DNA of 64,000 nt from Cohnella kolymensis (GTDB taxonomy: Bacteria > Bacillota > Bacilli > Paenibacillales > Paenibacillaceae), in contig NZ_JXAL01000004.1 of the NCBI RefSeq assembly GCF_000829465.1, positions 1 through 64,000 on the forward strand, given 5' to 3'. A program made the translations under genes and the position numbers. Below the pieces are notes generated by a model that searched no databases, was not told the origin of the DNA, and saw only the letters and a program-made list of their open reading frames with translations. Of this stretch, positions 13,954 to 20,441 are shown piece by piece; the first letter of the stretch is position 1; each line of letters begins with the position of its first letter.

Positions 13954-14436
13954 CTAATAAACCAATTCTGCAGATCCTTTCAAGTTCCATTCCACCGGAG
14001 CGAGAACGCCGAACAGCCGCGGATACTTCACATGGACGATGAGGACGACACCAGGCCGGTCGAGTGTAATTTCATACTGATATTGCGAGTTTCGATATGT
14101 ATACGGGTACTCCAGGTTCTCATTCAGAATTTCGAACACCCGGACTTCAACCGGATCACGCAGGAAGCTGCCTGAAACCGGCTTCAGCCCAGCGTCCAGC
14201 GCCAGATTGCCTCGAAGGTACTGGGCTGCGGCATTTTCCGCCATTTCCGGATGAACTGACAGCACCCCCATCTCAAGCTTCTCTCTATCTATCTGCTGTG
14301 CGGCTGCATGCGCAGCCCGATCGACGGCTCGTTTCGCTTCATGTACCGTACCCATGGCTAACTCTTCATCCATCTGCAGCGCATGCAGCATCCACCAAAT
14401 GACAATCATGAGCACACTGAGCACCAATTTGGCCAT
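13954..14436 (-). CDS. TadE/pseudopilin-like single-pass protein (Tad operon)
   Basis: The 160-aa protein starts with a short hydrophobic helix (about residues 3-19) followed by a long amphipathic stretch rich in Ala and Glu, and then a beta-rich extracellular domain. This build is typical of TadE/TadF and other pilin-like minor subunits. No family-level motif is recognised. It is the last gene of the Tad-type operon, 17 nt after the previous gene. It probably forms part of the extracytoplasmic appendage. Confidence 0.6.
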   Translation of the reverse strand: MAKLVLSVLMIVIWWMLHALQMDEELAMGTVHEAKRAVDRAAHAAAQQIDREKLEMGVLSVHPEMAENAAAQYLRGNLALDAGLKPVSGSFLRDPVEVRVFEILNENLEYPYTYRNSQYQYEITLDRPGVVLIVHVKYPRLFGVLAPVEWNLKGSAELVY

Positions 14437-14453
14437 TCCCGCACCAATTCTCC

Positions 14454-14879
14454 TTAAGGGACATATTCGCTCATTTTCATTCCCCTGCCGGAAATACGCG
14501 CATTCGCCGAAGGCGGTTGTATACCGATCAAACGGTCGATGTTGAGCAAGTTTTCGTAAGGGTACGTAATCGACAACCGAATTCCGACACCTCTCGTAAC
14601 AGGCGCTTGCGCATTGTCCCCTTCTGCGCCGGTGGTGGTCGCAATCTCATAGTTGAGTGAAGCGGCGTTGAAGCCATATTGGCCTAACCGATTCCGAGAT
14701 TCCGCCACCATCGCCCCGTCGATATATCCGTATTTGCCGCTAGCCCCGATCTCCAGCAAATAGTCCGTCTCCTGCTGGAGCAGCGCTTGACGTATAACCA
14801 GTACATGCTTGTAAATAGGAGAAAACATAAGCCAGCAGAACATAGCCGCAAACAAGACAAACACTAACAGCTGTTTCAC
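14454..14879 (-). CDS. pseudopilin-like single-pass protein (Tad operon)
   Basis: The 141-aa protein has an N-terminal hydrophobic helix (about residues 3-20) and a soluble domain with a region containing SRNRLGQYGF and ISGRGMKMSEY. The build matches that of the next gene, and both look like minor pilins or TadE-type proteins. The GTG start overlaps the stop of the upstream 48-aa gene (GTGA), so translation is coupled. No cleavage motif for a prepilin peptidase is obvious. Confidence 0.6.
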   Translation of the reverse strand: MKQLLVFVLFAAMFCWLMFSPIYKHVLVIRQALLQQETDYLLEIGASGKYGYIDGAMVAESRNRLGQYGFNAASLNYEIATTTGAEGDNAQAPVTRGVGIRLSITYPYENLLNIDRLIGIQPPSANARISGRGMKMSEYVP

Positions 14880-15022
14880 GGGCTGATCCGGGAAATTTGC
14901 TCAGCCATACGGTTTCCGGACGCGGTAATTTGCTCCTTCGTCCCGCCGTTACCCCCCGCAATCTGTGTATACAGGAGCACAACGGTCATGATCAGTAAAA
15001 CGGTCATCAATATTTGCCGCAA
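14876..15022 (-). CDS. 48-aa single-pass membrane protein, mini-pilin candidate 2
   Basis: A TTG start with GGGGAGGA 7 nt upstream gives a 48-aa protein that begins MRQILMTVLLIMTVVLLYTQ and ends in a short polar tail with Asn, Gly and Lys. It is clearly related to the 49-aa protein encoded just upstream (both read MRxILxTV followed by a hydrophobic helix of about 16 residues). The size and position suggest an Flp-pilin equivalent, but the usual Gly/Glu processing signature is absent. It overlaps the next gene by 4 nt. Confidence 0.65.
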   Translation of the reverse strand: MRQILMTVLLIMTVVLLYTQIAGGNGGTKEQITASGNRMAEQISRISP

Positions 15023-15035
15023 GCAAATTCCTCCC

Positions 15036-15185
15036 CTAAGGCTGCATGCTGCCGAGTGTAGTGTTGGCCGTCGTGCCGTGCGCTTCAATCCGTGCGCGAG
15101 TGCCCGTATTGTCCTGGGCCACGATCGTGTTGAACATCAATGCCACGACGATCAGCATCATGACGGTAATCAAAATATTGCGCAT
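15036..15185 (-). CDS. 49-aa single-pass membrane protein, mini-pilin candidate 1
   Basis: The ATG is preceded by a strong GGAAGGAGG. The 49-aa product begins MRNILITVMMLIVVALMFNT and has a 28-residue polar, Thr-rich tail ending in MQP. It precedes its paralogue by 13 nt. Both lie between the TadC-like membrane protein and the TadE-like proteins, the position where pilin genes occur in some Tad loci. A structural pilin or an assembly peptide of the inner-membrane platform are the two likely roles. Confidence 0.7.
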   Translation of the reverse strand: MRNILITVMMLIVVALMFNTIVAQDNTGTRARIEAHGTTANTTLGSMQP

Positions 15186-15200
15186 GAAAACACCTCCTTC

Positions 15201-16095
15201 CTATGGATTAAGAGCATCAAACAGCTTCGCCGCTTCCTGTACCCAAGGGTAAAGAAAGATTTGAAAGGTATAGAGAATCGGAATTCCCGCCAGCACGAAC
15301 AGCAGATAAGAAGTCGTCTCTTTGCGGCTGTCTTTCGCGAGGACGATTTTGGCTTTATAATCTCTCACCGATTCCCGCAGCAGATCATAAATATCTTCAC
15401 TCTCATTAAGGCGCAGTGACCGCAAGCTCTCGGCGAAGCCGTACGCTTCATCTGTGCCCAGCCGGTCCTTGAACCGTTTCAGCGCATGGTCCGCATCATG
15501 GTACCACTCATTGAGAAGCAGCCCCATTTCACCTCGGATGTGACGAGTCAAATAGAGGCATTTCATCAGCTTTCCATGAAGGTGCAGCCTGGAGCCCGTG
15601 TAATAGAGCAGCTGGCTGCTCACCGCCACGATTTCACCCCGGATCCGGTCCGTACGGTAGCGCCGAAAGGATTGCAGCCATACCCGATCATACGCAGCGA
15701 CAGCTGTAACAGCCAGCAAAAAAAAATAACAAGTTCCAACAGGTCAAAACCGGTATAGATCCGTTTAACCGTAATAAATAAATGACCGCTGCGGCTCCCG
15801 GCAGCAGCGCCAGCACAAAGCGCCGATAAGCCAAATAATCCTCTGGAAGAAGACGAATTCCGCAGCCTGCAAGCAGCACCCTGCGCTCTTGAAGAGTGAT
15901 GCTTTCCTTATCTGTGCGCCACAGTTTGAGAAACCAGGACGGGGTCTGCCTGCGGCGCCAGCCTCTGAAGTTAATCCGCCATCGGTTACGGGGCATGAAC
16001 AACAGCCTGACGACGACAGAAAATGAGATAAACAAGATCATAAATTGAATGAACCAGCTAACCCCGAACATCAAGCTGCGGCTGTAATCTGTCAA
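15201..16095 (-). pseudogene. tadC: TadC-like type II secretion F-domain protein, frame broken in a T9 tract
   Basis: The first frame (16095 to about 15718) encodes an N-terminal membrane helix and a cytoplasmic helical segment. The second frame (about 15719 to 15201) continues LLAVTAVAAYDRVW and the T2SF-type helices to a C-terminal pair of membrane segments. The break is at nine consecutive T on the coding strand (plus strand 15718-15726); eight would join the frames into a protein of about 298 aa. TadC pairs with TadB as the inner-membrane platform on which the ATPase acts. The start is TTG with AAGAAGG. Confidence 0.75.
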
Positions 16096-16115
16096 GGCAT
16101 CGCACCTTCTTTGTG

Positions 16116-17051
16116 TTACATTTTTTTGCGGGATAAATAGAGACCCATGATCAACGAACCGAACAGCAAAACCACCGCGTTAAGCAACATGCTGCGACCT
16201 GCAGAATCCAATATGTAATACATGTAGCTGCCTTCCGGATTCAGTCTGAAGTTGATGCCCATAAACAACGACAAAAATAACACGGGAGTAAAGTTGGCCA
16301 GACGGATTTCCAGCAGCCTATGGCGCTCGACATGATTAGCCATCTGGGCTTTACGCATATCGGCTATGATTTCCTTCAGATTATCCGCTACATTATTGCC
16401 TTCTTCGAGCGCCACCTTCAGAATGCTGCCGAAATAATCGGCCCACACATGCCCGAAAGCTAGACTAAACCGGCGCAAGCTTCCTTCATCGTCTCCATTG
16501 ACGGAGAGGCTGCGGTACAGCTGATCGAAAGCCGCCTGCACTTCCCCGGGAAGCCTCCGCTCCTCGACCGTCTTTTGCAAAGCGGTGCGCACGTGTCTGC
16601 AGCCGGTGACAAGATAACATTGATAGAACAGCTCCACGGCCGGCAGAAATTCCAGCCTTGTCGCCATCTGGCGGTTCACCAGCGACATTCTGAGCAGCAG
16701 ATAGGGCAGACTGCCTAAAATAACAAGCAGCAGAAAAACCGATCGTAAAGACTGAAACACCATCACTCCCGCGGAACTTCCCAGCAATCCCAGGCAAAGG
16801 GATATTAACGCAAAGCCGTTTGGCGTCATGCGCCAGCCCAACGTCAAGAGCAAATCGGCTACATGCTCGTACGGCCTGCCCAGGCGGCTCATTTGCAATG
16901 ATACGGCTTGATTCCATGCCGATTCTCTGTACGCATTCAGCCGCCGTTTGCGGGAACGGTTATCCGACCAGGCGGATAATGCAAAACGCAGGCTCACATA
17001 CAGAAGCAGGAAGAGGAGTGTGATGAGAGATACGACGGCGAGCTTCAGCAT
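16116..17051 (-). CDS. tadB: TadB-like type II secretion F-domain membrane protein
   Basis: The 311-aa protein has an N-terminal membrane helix, two central hydrophobic segments (about 75-115) and a C-terminal pair (about 245-305), with the cytoplasmic T2SF domain between them (LEFLPAVELFYQCYLVTG...VALEEGNNVADNLKEII). It forms the inner-membrane platform with TadC. The ATG lies inside the last codons of tadA (7-nt overlap), so the two are coupled. Confidence 0.85.
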   Translation of the reverse strand: MLKLAVVSLITLLFLLLYVSLRFALSAWSDNRSRKRRLNAYRESAWNQAVSLQMSRLGRPYEHVADLLLTLGWRMTPNGFALISLCLGLLGSSAGVMVFQSLRSVFLLLVILGSLPYLLLRMSLVNRQMATRLEFLPAVELFYQCYLVTGCRHVRTALQKTVEERRLPGEVQAAFDQLYRSLSVNGDDEGSLRRFSLAFGHVWADYFGSILKVALEEGNNVADNLKEIIADMRKAQMANHVERHRLLEIRLANFTPVLFLSLFMGINFRLNPEGSYMYYILDSAGRSMLLNAVVLLFGSLIMGLYLSRKKM

Positions 17052-18451
17052 GGGTTAATGGCTCCCAAAGCCTGCAGCGTCTGGCCTCCCTCCGGGTCGT
17101 GCCGGAATATCCTTTGCGATGCACGGCTTGAGAGCGGCTCGGCAAATATCCAACGGCCGAGAGAATCTTCATAGCGTACGACATCACGAACCTTGATCTC
17201 CCCATTCAGCCATTCGTATTCCCCGATCCGCACCAGCTTGCGGAAACCGCCGATCATCCGCATTTCAAAACCGATCTGGGTCACATGCTCGACAATGCGC
17301 CGGGTCATCCGGCCGGCATTCATGCCGCGGCCATCCAGCATGCACATGTCGGTAATGGTATCCGGCACATCTTCAAGAGTGTTGGCATGAACGGACGTGA
17401 TGCTGCCCTCATGGCCTCTGGTGCAGGCTCTCACGTATATATTCGCGTCTTCATCGCGGATCTCCGCATGGCAAATACGCTGCGGCGATTGACGAAGCGC
17501 AAGCTTAAAAGCCTGCCTTGGCCCATGAAGGGGGTCGTCTTCATCCGATTCGTATTCGATCACATTCTTGCCCGGAAAGTCCCGTGCCAGCATCAGTTCG
17601 AACCGGCCCTCGATCGTTACGATTCTTTCCTCGTCCGGCATTGCCGCGATCAATGCTTTAATGAGGTGCGTCTTTCCGGTATTCGTTGCACCAATGACCA
17701 CCATATTGAAACGACTTCGAACAATAACTAGAAGCAGCTTGAGCATATCCTCATCGATCGTCCGGTACTCCGGGCGCCAAAGCGTCTCAAGATTGAATCG
17801 CTTGACCGTATAGAACCGGATCGTCAACGTCGGCTGCGCGGTAAAACCGAATCCCGTCATCGTCACTCTTGAACCGTCCGATAAAAGCACTTCCGCCCAT
17901 CTTTTTCGCGGGTTGATCCGATCATTATTGAATAACACCAAATTTTGCTGAATCCGCTCGACGTGGCTTATATCCTGGAATCGGTAAGGCGATGCGGCCG
18001 CCCTGCCGTCGCGCACTTCAAAGATCCCCGTACCGACGACCTGCACTTCCTCCAACCCCTCACGGTTGCGCAGCACAAGTTCAAGCACGTTCATGCCGAT
18101 GACTTCCGCAAACAGCGCTTCCGCCAGACTGCCATAGGGAAGATTGCCGAAAGGCATATGCTGGAGCCTTTTTTTAATTAACCAGTCGGCTATGATCGCC
18201 AGCATCTCGGCCCGCTCCTGCGGAAATCCGATGACGGCCCGATTCAGCTTCTCGGCATATTGCCGCCGCTGCTCGTCGCTCCATCCGCGAGGCGTGGCAA
18301 GCATTTGTCGGACTTCCTCCGTATACGCTTGCAATGAGGATAATCCGCCGGATAGATGGCGGGCCGATTGAGGCGGTTCAGCTATCGACGCTTGAAGATC
18401 CGCCGCATAGGCGGAAGTTGAAAACCGTTTGGAGGCGCCGTCCGCTGTCAT
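17045..18451 (-). CDS. tadA: TadA/CpaF-type secretion ATPase
   Basis: The 468-aa ATPase has the type II/IV secretion fold: an N-terminal helical domain (about residues 1-160), then Walker A VVIGATNTGKTHLI, an Asp box region, and a Walker B/His box reading CHAEIRDEDA and TRGHEGSITSVHANT. It powers pilus assembly or protein export at the TadB/TadC platform. The ATG at 18451 is chosen because it has GGAGGG upstream and overlaps the preceding stop as ATGA; a longer reading from 18595 would overlap that gene by 148 nt. Confidence 0.92.
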   Translation of the reverse strand: MTADGASKRFSTSAYAADLQASIAEPPQSARHLSGGLSSLQAYTEEVRQMLATPRGWSDEQRRQYAEKLNRAVIGFPQERAEMLAIIADWLIKKRLQHMPFGNLPYGSLAEALFAEVIGMNVLELVLRNREGLEEVQVVGTGIFEVRDGRAAASPYRFQDISHVERIQQNLVLFNNDRINPRKRWAEVLLSDGSRVTMTGFGFTAQPTLTIRFYTVKRFNLETLWRPEYRTIDEDMLKLLLVIVRSRFNMVVIGATNTGKTHLIKALIAAMPDEERIVTIEGRFELMLARDFPGKNVIEYESDEDDPLHGPRQAFKLALRQSPQRICHAEIRDEDANIYVRACTRGHEGSITSVHANTLEDVPDTITDMCMLDGRGMNAGRMTRRIVEHVTQIGFEMRMIGGFRKLVRIGEYEWLNGEIKVRDVVRYEDSLGRWIFAEPLSSRASQRIFRHDPEGGQTLQALGAINPC

Positions 18452-19284
18452 TTTTCCCTCCGGCGGTGAACCATAAGTCTTCTCATCCAAGGACGTTCCG
18501 TCTTTTGCAGCCTTTCTGCCCAATTCAGCTTCGTAAGCAGCGGTGAGGCGATCGCATCGAATGCAGCCGCATTGCGCTCCTCCGCAGCAAGCCATTCATC
18601 CAATCTGCCGCTGTCCAACTGCAGATGCACGCTCTCCATCAACCGCAGCTCTGTAAACTCGGAACATCCGGTTTCCTTGCGAATTTCTTTCACACGAAAT
18701 CCCCCCGTCAGTCGATGAGTGCCCTGCAGCAGCACCAATTGAAATTGCTCCGGCATTATACCGAACATAGACCCAACCTGACCGGTCCAACGATGTACGT
18801 CCTCTTGAAAATGGCTCAGGTTGTCCGTTGTGACTAAAAATTTGTCGTCCGCTTCGCGCATCGCGCAGACAGTAGCCGCATTATCCCAATAAGCGCTGAC
18901 ATCCGCGATGGTGAGATCAAATGCCTCACGCGACGCCGCAAGCAGCTTAAGCATGTCTTCGGCTTCGTAATATTCCGCTTGCTCTCTGGCCATATTGCCG
19001 AACAGAACGTTCAGACCGCCAAGTTTGGGCGAACGAAACGCGTACTGACGCAATTTGTCAGCTGTCAGTGTGCCTGCCCGCAGTTCGGGCCTTAGCCCGT
19101 CCAGCGTAATATCCGGTTTGTCGACTCCCAAATACAGGTGCGTCTTAGCGCTCTTGAGATTAAGGCATAAATAGCCGACCCGGCGGCCGGTCAAAGCCGC
19201 AATGCGATAAGCCGTTCCGAACGCCGTCAATGATGTTCCGATATTCGGCGTTGAACCGGCAAAGGCGGCAAGTCTTCCGGACAT
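18448..19284 (-). CDS. TadZ/CpaE-like ParA-fold protein with degenerate Walker A
   Basis: The 278-aa protein resembles the ParA/MinD-fold localisation factors of Tad systems (TadZ/CpaE). Where a deviant Walker A (KGGxGKTT) is expected it reads AGSTPNIGTSLTAFG, lacking both lysines, so ATP hydrolysis is doubtful. A Walker-B-like FDLTIADVSAY (about residues 123-133) follows. TadZ proteins place the secretion machine at a pole or focus. The ATG overlaps the preceding stop (TAATG). Confidence 0.75.
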   Translation of the reverse strand: MSGRLAAFAGSTPNIGTSLTAFGTAYRIAALTGRRVGYLCLNLKSAKTHLYLGVDKPDITLDGLRPELRAGTLTADKLRQYAFRSPKLGGLNVLFGNMAREQAEYYEAEDMLKLLAASREAFDLTIADVSAYWDNAATVCAMREADDKFLVTTDNLSHFQEDVHRWTGQVGSMFGIMPEQFQLVLLQGTHRLTGGFRVKEIRKETGCSEFTELRLMESVHLQLDSGRLDEWLAAEERNAAAFDAIASPLLTKLNWAERLQKTERPWMRRLMVHRRREK

Positions 19285-19991
19285 TATTCCCCCTCCTTCT
19301 GTATTGCGGATGTTTGATAAGCGATAACGAGTTTCGCGGTTCCTCCTTTGCAAGCGGAATCCATTAACAGCCATTGCTCTTCCGTCAGATTTAAATTAAT
19401 CGAATCAATCGTTCCGTTAGCATCGCGGCGGGATGCATACATTCCTTCCTTGTCATTGTTGGCCAGCGAAAGCAAATTCGGATTCTTCGGGTTGTCGATC
19501 TCGAGGTTAGCCGCCGTCTTCACCCCGGCCACCCGAATGGGGTCGGCGAACAGACGCTTGGAAGGAACCGCCTCATCCGACAGATAAACCGCAATCTCAT
19601 CCCCCGCCCGGATCCCATTCGAAATGGACTTCACATACTCACGCGGAATTTGAAACGTGGACTCCCCGGTACGGGGAAGGAGTCTGTATTTATCCACTTT
19701 CCACTTAAGCAGCGGTTCATTGCCGCCGAGCGGGACCGATGTTTCCATACCTACGGTTTCCGTTAGATTCCTGACCATGTCCGGTGTTACCGCCCGGCCG
19801 GGAAGCTGAATCACCTTCAGGTGATCCTTGCTTAGAATGGTGCCGGTCTCGATAAACTGCTTCGGTGCGACAACATCGATTGTTTGCTGAAGCTTGATTT
19901 GCCGCAATTGCAGTAAATACACGCCATATACTAGCAATCCTGAAATAACCGCGGCCGATATGCTGATTGTGATCTGCCTGCGCCGATTCAC
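19284..19991 (-). CDS. SAF-domain (CpaB/RcpC-like) membrane-anchored protein
   Basis: The 235-aa protein has one N-terminal membrane helix (about residues 8-26) and a SAF-type beta-clip domain (IETGTILSKDHLKVIQLPG, about 45-100), the architecture of CpaB/RcpC proteins that organise the extracytoplasmic side of Flp pili. It leads the operon. The GTG at 19991 has GAGGGTGA upstream. A longer reading frame from 20030 would run through the T tract of a terminator and is rejected. Confidence 0.8.
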   Translation of the reverse strand: MNRRRQITISISAAVISGLLVYGVYLLQLRQIKLQQTIDVVAPKQFIETGTILSKDHLKVIQLPGRAVTPDMVRNLTETVGMETSVPLGGNEPLLKWKVDKYRLLPRTGESTFQIPREYVKSISNGIRAGDEIAVYLSDEAVPSKRLFADPIRVAGVKTAANLEIDNPKNPNLLSLANNDKEGMYASRRDANGTIDSINLNLTEEQWLLMDSACKGGTAKLVIAYQTSAIQKEGE

Positions 19992-20011
19992 CTCATCACC
20001 CTCTTTTCCGG

Positions 20012-20066
20012 AAAATAAAAAAAAACGCAAGCGAGGAGTTATCTCCTTCGCCTGCGTTCTTCGCAG
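20012..20066 (-). promoter_or_regulatory. leader terminator/attenuator immediately before the Tad operon
   Basis: On the minus strand the arms AACGCAGGCGAAGGAG (20058-20043) and CTCCTCGCTTGCGTT (20038-20024) form a stem of about 15 bp with one bulge. It is followed by a T run ending about 20 nt before the GTG of the first Tad gene. A competing hairpin CTGCG-AAGAA-CGCAG (20066-20052) uses part of the 5' arm. The structure lies downstream of the promoter at 20095-20123 and therefore in the operon leader, which suggests conditional termination. Confidence 0.7.
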
Positions 20067-20094
20067 TGAACATGAAGCCTATATTGCTTGTTAA

Positions 20095-20123
20095 CGCCAA
20101 CTATAGCAAATACTTGTCTGCGT
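20095..20123 (-). promoter_or_regulatory. sigma-A-type promoter of the Tad operon
   Basis: The minus strand reads TTTACA, a 17-nt spacer and TATAGT. The predicted transcript would start near 20088 and enter a leader of about 95 nt before the first start codon. Confidence 0.65.
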
Positions 20124-20200
20124 GTAAAGTCCTTTTTTGACATTTTACTGCAGGTTTCGCTTATTCAACTTTACTTTTACGCCCAAAACTAATGTCCGTT

Positions 20201-20285
20201 CGTCAGGGGACGAATTAAGCCGCTGCCAGCGGTTTAAAGGGTGCAAAAAAGTCGTCAGGGGACGAATTAAGCCGCTGCCAGCGGT
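20201..20285. repeat. two direct copies of a 33-nt double-hairpin element
   Basis: Identical 33-nt units occupy 20201-20233 and 20253-20285 with a 19-nt spacer. Each contains two small hairpins, CGTC-AGGG-GACG and CCGCT-GCC-AGCGG, joined by AATTAAG. They lie in the 360-nt interval between the metallo-hydrolase gene and the Tad operon promoter. No third copy was noticed in the window. Function is unknown. Confidence 0.8.
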
Positions 20286-20384
20286 CTATTTGCCAATGAA
20301 CAAGGAACAAGGTGGAACAGAAATATATAGAGACTTATGCGAGGAGTAGGGCAATTCACTTTCAGCTTTCAGCAAAGATAAATA

Positions 20385-20427
20385 CAAAAAACGCAAGCGA
20401 GGAGTTTTCTCCATCACCTGCGCCTTT
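20385..20427 (-). terminator. intrinsic terminator after the MBL-fold gene, near copy of the Tad leader terminator
   Basis: On the minus strand GCGCAGGTGATGGAG pairs with CTCCTCGCTTGCGT and is followed by T6. The 3' arm and T run are identical over 20 nt with the leader terminator at 20012-20058, and differences in the 5' arm keep pairing. Confidence 0.75.
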
Positions 20428-20441
20428 TCAGTTACTCTCAA

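What the first reader, a model, noticed from the sequence alone, without database searches (positions are those of the whole stretch)
13954..20123. Tad-type secretion operon with two 48-49-aa paralogous membrane proteins in place of a recognisable Flp pilin
The order is SAF/CpaB-like, TadZ-like, TadA, TadB, TadC, two mini-proteins and two pseudopilin-like proteins, all coupled or closely spaced. The two tiny genes share MRxILxTV and a hydrophobic helix, but lack a prepilin-peptidase signature. No TadV peptidase, secretin or flp gene is present. The mini-proteins could be the pilins of a Gram-positive variant or peptides that adjust the TadB/C platform.
Basis: partly seen in the sequence, partly recalled or inferred. 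Interest (0 to 1): 0.75.

Follow-up and report, generated by a model that had tools for sequence, protein, structure and literature searches.

The report
Tad-like machine with leaderless mini-pilins
A soil bacterium and many of its relatives carry a pilus-type gene set whose two tiny candidate fibre proteins lack the cut-off leader that such proteins normally need, so the machine may work without the usual processing enzyme.

Summary
The operon is real. It lies on the minus strand (13954-19991) of a Cohnella-type genome, in the order SAF/CpaB-like, TadZ-like, TadA, TadB, TadC, minA (49 aa), minB (48 aa), TadE-like, TadF-like. TadA relatives of at least 51% identity are in 62 of 100 sampled genomes of the order; in a 398-genome phylum sample only the own genome matched. 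Of 80 named loci, 77 have minA and 74 also minB, in the flp slot between tadC and tadE. Both are under purifying selection (dN/dS about 0.13 and 0.25). They are paralogues with no detectable Flp similarity. None of the four pilin-like products has a plausible prepilin site. No peptidase is in the operon, and one relative keeps the operon with no A24 peptidase detected in its genome. Best reading: a Tad-derived machine whose pilin-class subunits are made leaderless. That the mini-proteins polymerise is inferred, not shown. An attenuator-like leader precedes the operon in 79 of 79 loci checked, and prophage-like insertions split it in 3 of 37 genomes of the genus.

The parts
20100..20128 (-). 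sigma-A-like promoter TTTACA-N17-TATAGT
   Evidence: sequence; a matching hexamer pair in the upstream region of 38 of the 60 loci scanned, nearly all of the genus
20016..20065 (-). leader: small hairpin TGCG-AAGAA-CGCA overlapping an intrinsic terminator (attenuator-like), just upstream of the first gene
   Evidence: motif plus T-run in 79 of 79 loci, outer hairpin pairs vary together; terminator-like site in 58 of 60 loci of another, overlapping set
19284..19991 (-). SAF/CpaB-like membrane protein (likely GTG start at 19991)
   Evidence: TIGR03177 E=3e-6, below cut-off; conserved position
18448..19284 (-). TadZ/CpaE-like protein
   Evidence: TIGR03815 E=9.9e-5, below cut-off
17045..18451 (-). 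TadA/CpaF-like secretion ATPase (open frame reaches 18595)
   Evidence: PF00437 68.9 bits, above cut-off 24.9; closest solved relatives CpaF
16116..17051 (-). TadB-like platform protein
   Evidence: PF00482 E=0.033, below cut-off; order
15201..16095 (-). TadC-like platform gene, split in this window into 15688-16095 and 15201-15719 by a frameshift at a T9 run
15036..15185 (-). minA, 49 aa leaderless, one hydrophobic stretch, candidate major subunit
14876..15022 (-). minB, 48 aa paralogue of minA, candidate minor subunit, stop overlaps the tadE-like start
14454..14879 (-). TadE-like protein: N-terminal helix 2-45 plus a small mixed domain, no prepilin site
   Evidence: AlphaFold2 mean pLDDT 93
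13954..14436 (-). TadF-like protein: N-terminal helix 2-46 plus a mixed, mostly beta domain
   Evidence: AlphaFold2 mean pLDDT 92

Best explanation
This is a Tad-derived type IV filament machine, inherited in the order Paenibacillales, in which the pilin-class subunits are made without a leader. minA (likely main subunit), minB (likely minor) and the TadE-like and TadF-like proteins begin only a few residues, one of them basic, before the membrane helix. They would insert N-in/C-out and be moved outward by the TadA ATPase through the TadB/TadC platform without prepilin-peptidase cleavage. Shown: the genes, their conservation and constraint, the flp-slot position, the lack of plausible cleavage sites, the lack of a peptidase in the operon, and one genome with the operon and no detected A24 peptidase. 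Inferred: membrane topology, assembly into a filament, and the roles of A and B.
For: Conservation: 77 of 80 named loci have minA and 74 also minB between tadC and tadE; the other three are one contig end and two loci split by prophage-like insertions. Lengths are nearly fixed: minB 48 aa in 72 of 74. Constraint: median dN/dS minA 0.13, minB 0.25, TadE 0.14, TadZ 0.12 (25 of the 28 loci L118-L145). minA has the highest mean identity (0.78) of the eight operon genes in that call; TadA was not in it. Leaderless: minA starts MRNIL in 77 of 77; minB and TadE-like start M, then (in nearly every row) R or K, one residue and the hydrophobic stretch; TadF-like starts M-x-K-L. [A/G]x4[D/E] lies in the first 24 residues of 1 of 77 minA, 1 of 74 minB and 0 of 76 TadE-like; no alternative upstream start in 50 of 78 minA, 43 of 75 minB, 70 of 77 TadE-like and 66 of 77 TadF-like. 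Same-genome contrast: the two canonical Flps have KDEKG|QGMTEY and NERG|IGTLE sites, and the part after the cut is 51 and 44 residues, about the full length of the minis. Peptidase: G052 (99% complete) has no A24 match at E up to 10, and its only T2SSE-family ATPase is this TadA. minA has the strongest median SD of eight genes (-12.9), minB and TadZ next (-11.2). [quoted passage not shown]
Against: No profile similarity of minA to a canonical Flp of the same genome or of the TadE-like to that genome's canonical TadE; each was tested against one sequence. The AlphaFold models of the TadE/TadF-like proteins gave no convincing solved pilin. minA codon usage is not biased like a very abundant protein. 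minB is absent in Thermobacillus L177 and L181 and was not found in L184. The hydrophilic part after the helix is rich in G, T and N, unlike the continuing helix of Flp (recalled). Peptidase absence rests on one draft genome; 99 of 100 relatives have an A24 peptidase. In 28 of 78 minA and 32 of 75 minB loci an in-frame upstream start exists.
Confidence: 0.5

Rival explanations
1. minA and minB are single-span accessory subunits of the TadB/TadC platform (or of a channel), never polymerised; the machine moves TadE/TadF-like pseudopilins or a secreted cargo.
For: No Flp similarity; no abundant-protein codon bias; minB stop overlaps the tadE-like start in 61 of 73 loci, so its output is tied to that partner; minB can be lost.
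Against: They occupy the flp slot and have about the length of mature Flp; minA and minB have strong SD sites; minA is conserved more than TadB and the C-terminal part of TadC.
Confidence: 0.3
2. minA is an exported peptide cleaved by signal peptidase I (signal-like h-region, often I-[IV]-A before residue 24) and acts outside as a signal or as a small free subunit.
For: Residue 23 is A, S or T in 53 of 57 minA and residue 21 is I or V in 56 of 57; a weak PhrA-like hit of minB, E=0.12, far below cut-off.
Against: The matching position is not small in many minB (V20, A18, T7, I6 of 57), although the two are paralogues; only one positive charge before the helix. No signal-peptide predictor was available.
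Confidence: 0.1
3. The subunits are processed after all by the A24 peptidase of another system in the cell, at a non-canonical site.
For: Peptidase sharing between systems is known, and MSH loci lack their own (PMC6668835, passages); 99 of 100 relatives have an A24 gene.
Against: No plausible site; G052 has the operon without a detected A24 gene; in six genomes the only over-cut-off A24 gene lies about 6 kb from another ATPase and on another contig than this operon, or 90 kb from it.
Confidence: 0.07
4. The mini-ORFs are chance or decaying frames.
For: They are short, and TadC is broken in this window.
Against: Conservation, fixed length, purifying selection.
Confidence: 0.01

Closest known systems
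Canonical Tad/Flp pilus (T4cP), e.g. Caulobacter Cpa and Aggregatibacter Tad
   Same: CpaF-like ATPase, two platform-like proteins, TadZ-like and CpaB-like proteins, gene order, small protein in the flp slot, two TadE/F-type proteins
   Different: No plausible Flp-type prepilin site in any subunit, no TadV in the operon; TadA only about 30% identical to the other TadA proteins found in relatives; no Pfam family for the window's TadE/F-like proteins or for 75 further TadE-like rows beyond scattered weak hits
Gram-positive tad-like loci without prepilin motifs (Clostridium kluyveri, C. cellulolyticum, C. bolteae, C. sp. L2-50, Desulfitobacterium hafniense; PMC3244431, section 12 read)
   Same: Tad-like locus in which no product shows a prepilin signal
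   Different: Those keep tadV; here none is in the operon. Their sequences were not compared here
Micrococcus luteus tad-1/tad-2 (PMC4322843, passages)
   Same: tadA-B-C-(flp)-E/F order, no tadV in the loci, Gram-positive
   Different: Flp carries the G/XXXXEY site and a separate tadV is required; function is DNA uptake there, unknown here
Paenibacillus sp. NAIST15-1 pili loci (PMC5072692, passages)
   Same: Two loci with Tad/Flp assembly-like genes in which the authors found no pilin gene; one may be this system (not tested)
   Different: Deletion of putative pili genes there did not change motility on plates; the authors also list a pre-pilin peptidase among the products of the two loci

Membership tests
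Tad/Flp pilus (T4cP) | TadA/CpaF-family ATPase | tested here: met
   PF00437 68.9 bits, above cut-off; CpaF best among solved structures, E=1.5e-38; but TIGR03819, 104.7 bits, is below its cut-off of 373
Tad/Flp pilus (T4cP) | Two T2SSF-type platform proteins | tested here: inconclusive
   TadB PF00482 E=0.033 below cut-off, TadC pieces no match; order and size fit
Tad/Flp pilus (T4cP) | Flp prepilin with G/XXXXEY site | tested here: not met
   absent in minA/minB; no profile similarity to one Flp of the same genome
Tad/Flp pilus (T4cP) | Prepilin peptidase TadV (A24), own or shared | tested here: not met
   none in the operon; none detected in G052, though 99 of 100 relatives, the own genome included, have one elsewhere
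Tad/Flp pilus (T4cP) | TadE/TadF pseudopilins | tested here: inconclusive
   position and long-helix models fit; no family or convincing fold match
Tad/Flp pilus (T4cP) | CpaB/RcpC and TadZ/CpaE proteins | tested here: inconclusive
   weak hits below cut-off
Tad/Flp pilus (T4cP) | Extracellular filament of the small protein | not testable with these tools
   needs shearing, mass spectrometry, microscopy
Com pilus (ComG) | ComGA equivalog | tested here: not met
   window TadA 32.7 bits against cut-off 300; 0 of 100 relatives over cut-off
SpoIIIA complex | SpoIIIA proteins in the locus | tested here: not met
   only minB against PF12685 at E=0.082, below cut-off; 5 of 39 minis match it weakly, best E 0.013

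The most novel reading that the evidence does not exclude
A type IV filament machine that has done away with prepilin processing: it polymerises pilins synthesised directly in mature, leaderless form. As a further step, it could serve DNA uptake in an order where no ComGA equivalog was found over cut-off (0 of 100) while ComEA is near universal (99 of 100) and prophage-like insertions repeatedly split the operon (I put that further step at about 0.15).
Probability: 0.4. Interest if true: 0.82.

Novelty: new variant of a known kind. Interest (0 to 1): 0.62.

Why it matters
In a review of type 4 filaments, prepilins are defined by their leader-bearing signal, and a prepilin peptidase is listed for each of the five bacterial machineries in its table (PMC10191384, passages). 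A conserved relative whose subunits appear never to carry a leader would separate what the leader is for (delayed release, ordered assembly) from what the helix is for, and can be tested by gene removal in ordinary soil bacteria.

Tried and rejected
Canonical Flp homology: searched by Pfam, NCBIfam and profile comparison; nothing. Weak Pfam hits of the minis (best ODV-E18 4.4e-4, 6 of 39 members, and Conotoxin 2.3e-3, 11 of 39) are scattered over unrelated small hydrophobic proteins and were set aside as composition matches; one member matches the class III signal family at E=0.065.

SpoIIIA relation: rejected.

Position of the B. subtilis comG operon (between yqgX-like and yqhT-like genes, recalled): not used as evidence, because flanking genes vary between loci; the MBL gene was found in 28 and pepP in 62 of 80 loci within the flanks held.

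ComGA against operon presence: no contrast, 0 of 100 over cut-off. ComEA: 99 of 100, no contrast.

Codon bias for minA as a sign of abundance: not seen.

Rfam on the leader: nothing near a gathering score. The leader motif was searched in the own genome: this site plus two others, with one hit of the reversed control, so no regulon is claimed.

Print searches for this system. No listed title or abstract start named it; only an open-licence library was searched, and most papers were seen as listings.
Full report
What is there. The minus strand of 13954-19991 holds nine gene positions in tight order: SAF/CpaB-like, TadZ-like, TadA, TadB-like, TadC-like, minA, minB, TadE-like, TadF-like. TadA is the only product over a Pfam cut-off (PF00437); its closest solved relatives are CpaF motors. 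The other names rest on weak hits and order. The window is the start of a 105-kb contig of a 4.34-Mb genome. Same-genus genomes share contig lengths with Cohnella records, so I take the genus to be Cohnella.

A flaw in the window. TadC lies in two frames that meet at a run of nine T. In the unnamed-genome set the frame through the C-terminal half is 297 aa or longer in 59 of 61 rows. The exceptions are the window genome (180 aa) and L052 (257 aa), a row to be discounted because its contig ends inside tadB. An assembly error at the run is the simplest cause; real inactivation is not excluded. The A24 match on contig 1 of the same genome also falls into two frames.

The mini-genes are real. In the unnamed set, 57 of 61 rows have both minis, one (L045) has minA only, and three have none found (L052 and L069 lie at contig ends; L066 is the genome of L139, split by an insertion). 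In the named set (80 kept of 169 confirmed places), 74 have both, three have one, two have none found and one has no tadC in reach. The two sets overlap. The three with one mini are the two Thermobacillus loci L177 and L181, where tadE follows minA directly, and L184, where a gap of 245 bases remains and the search pattern may have missed minB. The three without are L139 (minA split), L140 (tadA split) and L142 (contig end). minB is 48 aa in 72 of 74; minA is 49 aa in 53 of 74. The minB stop overlaps the tadE-like start by 4 bases in 61 of 73. Nei-Gojobori medians for pairs with dS under 2, among 25 of the 28 loci L118-L145 (L139, L140, L142 dropped; all 25 titled Cohnella), are minA 0.13, minB 0.25, TadE 0.14, TadF 0.19, TadC C-part 0.17, TadB 0.21, TadZ 0.12, SAF 0.20 (23 loci for SAF). 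minA has the highest mean identity of these eight (0.78; TadZ 0.76); TadA was not in that call. minA and minB are paralogues.

Distribution. A TadA relative of this branch (E below 1e-100, 51% identity or more) is in 62 of 100 sampled genomes of the order, including all 37 sampled of the genus, two of which carry it split; 19 others have only a TadA of about 30% identity. In a 398-genome phylum sample at E up to 1e-60 only the own genome matched, with at most three candidates scored per listed genome. Among the 80 kept named loci the titles are Cohnella, Paenibacillus, Thermobacillus and a Paenibacillaceae bin, with one titled Bacillus sp..

Leaderless subunits. minA starts MRNIL in 77 of 77 loci; minB and TadE-like start with M, a basic residue (in nearly every row), one more residue and the hydrophobic stretch; TadF-like starts M-x-K-L. 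The search for [A/G]x4[D/E] within the first 24 residues found 1 of 77 minA, 1 of 74 minB and 0 of 76 TadE-like. TadF-like has it in 47 of 76, but at residue 18 or 19, at the far end of the hydrophobic stretch, which is not a prepilin context. In-frame upstream starts are absent in 50 of 78 minA, 43 of 75 minB, 70 of 77 TadE-like and 66 of 77 TadF-like rows (window included), so a minority could in principle be longer; the window's own minB has one 22 codons upstream. In the same genome, canonical Flps on contigs 1 and 16 do carry the site, near A24 genes.

Peptidase. 99 of 100 relatives have an A24 peptidase. The exception, G052 (99% complete, 110 contigs), has this operon with two mini-ORFs, no A24 hit even at E up to 10, and one T2SSE-family ATPase only, namely this TadA. 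In its genus 50 of 51 have an A24 gene. So the operon can be kept without a detected peptidase, on the evidence of one draft genome. In G039, G051, G055, G074, G077 and G093 the only over-cut-off A24 match sits about 6 kb from another ATPase.

Structure. AlphaFold2 gives confident models of the TadE-like (pLDDT 93) and TadF-like (92) proteins: a helix of about 45 residues from residue 2, then a small mixed domain. This is a pilin-like layout but has no convincing solved match. The minis were not modelled (two jobs only).

Control of expression. Upstream lies a sigma-A-like promoter, matched in 38 of 60 loci. A terminator-like site directly before the first gene is found in 58 of 60 loci of the unnamed set. 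Outside the core, the next pair is T-A or A-T in 76 of 79, and the next is Watson-Crick in 54 of 79, against a shuffle mean of 24 and maximum of 40, and at most 33 when the partner is slid by one or two bases (shuffles ignore kinship). The two structures exclude each other, so an attenuator is likely. What it senses is unknown; Rfam has no match.

Prophages. In G011 and G031 tadA is split by insertions of about 42.5 and 40.3 kb that carry phage-like genes and, next to tadA, a serine-type and a tyrosine-type integrase-like ORF respectively (named by sequence look, no family search). G031's contig has the length of the Cohnella silvisoli contig of L140. In Cohnella sp. AR92 (L139) minA stops after its first residues, and an integrase-like ORF follows. 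That is 3 of 37 sampled genomes of the genus. The own genome's canonical tadA on contig 16 is likewise split by an element with a serine-recombinase-like ORF. A prophage in comGA of Staphylococcus pseudintermedius (PMC7029219, passages) and Tad-dependent transformation in Micrococcus luteus (PMC4322843, passages) make DNA uptake a fair question, no more.

Verdict. Tad-like in layout and probably in working; not filed as a canonical Tad pilus, because the Flp site and the peptidase were tested and not met. New variant of a known kind, with a testable claim of peptidase independence.

Noticed in passing
window 15201-16095: tadC frame break at a T9 run, not seen in relatives
   Followed up: partly
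window 20016-20065: Attenuator-like leader found in 79 of 79 loci, with a hairpin that overlaps the terminator
   Followed up: partly
L201-L204 (G011, G031), L139 9280-10618: Three prophage-like insertions with different integrase-like ORFs inside tadA (two) and minA (one)
   Followed up: partly
L005 1261-3670 and L107 692-1120 (own genome contig 16): Canonical tadA of another system split by about 41 kb with a serine-recombinase-like ORF
   Followed up: partly
own genome contig 1, 574024-574334: A24 peptidase match of the canonical Tad locus lies in two frames
   Followed up: no
window 20200-20233 and 20252-20285: Two exact direct copies of a 34-base stretch between the operon and the MBL gene
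   Followed up: no
window 20380-20430: A second terminator-like stretch similar in sequence to the leader terminator, after the MBL gene
   Followed up: no
L177, L181 (Thermobacillus): minB missing; the tadE-like gene follows minA directly
   Followed up: partly
L057 7329-8708: Transposase-like ORF (by look) between tadC and minA
   Followed up: no
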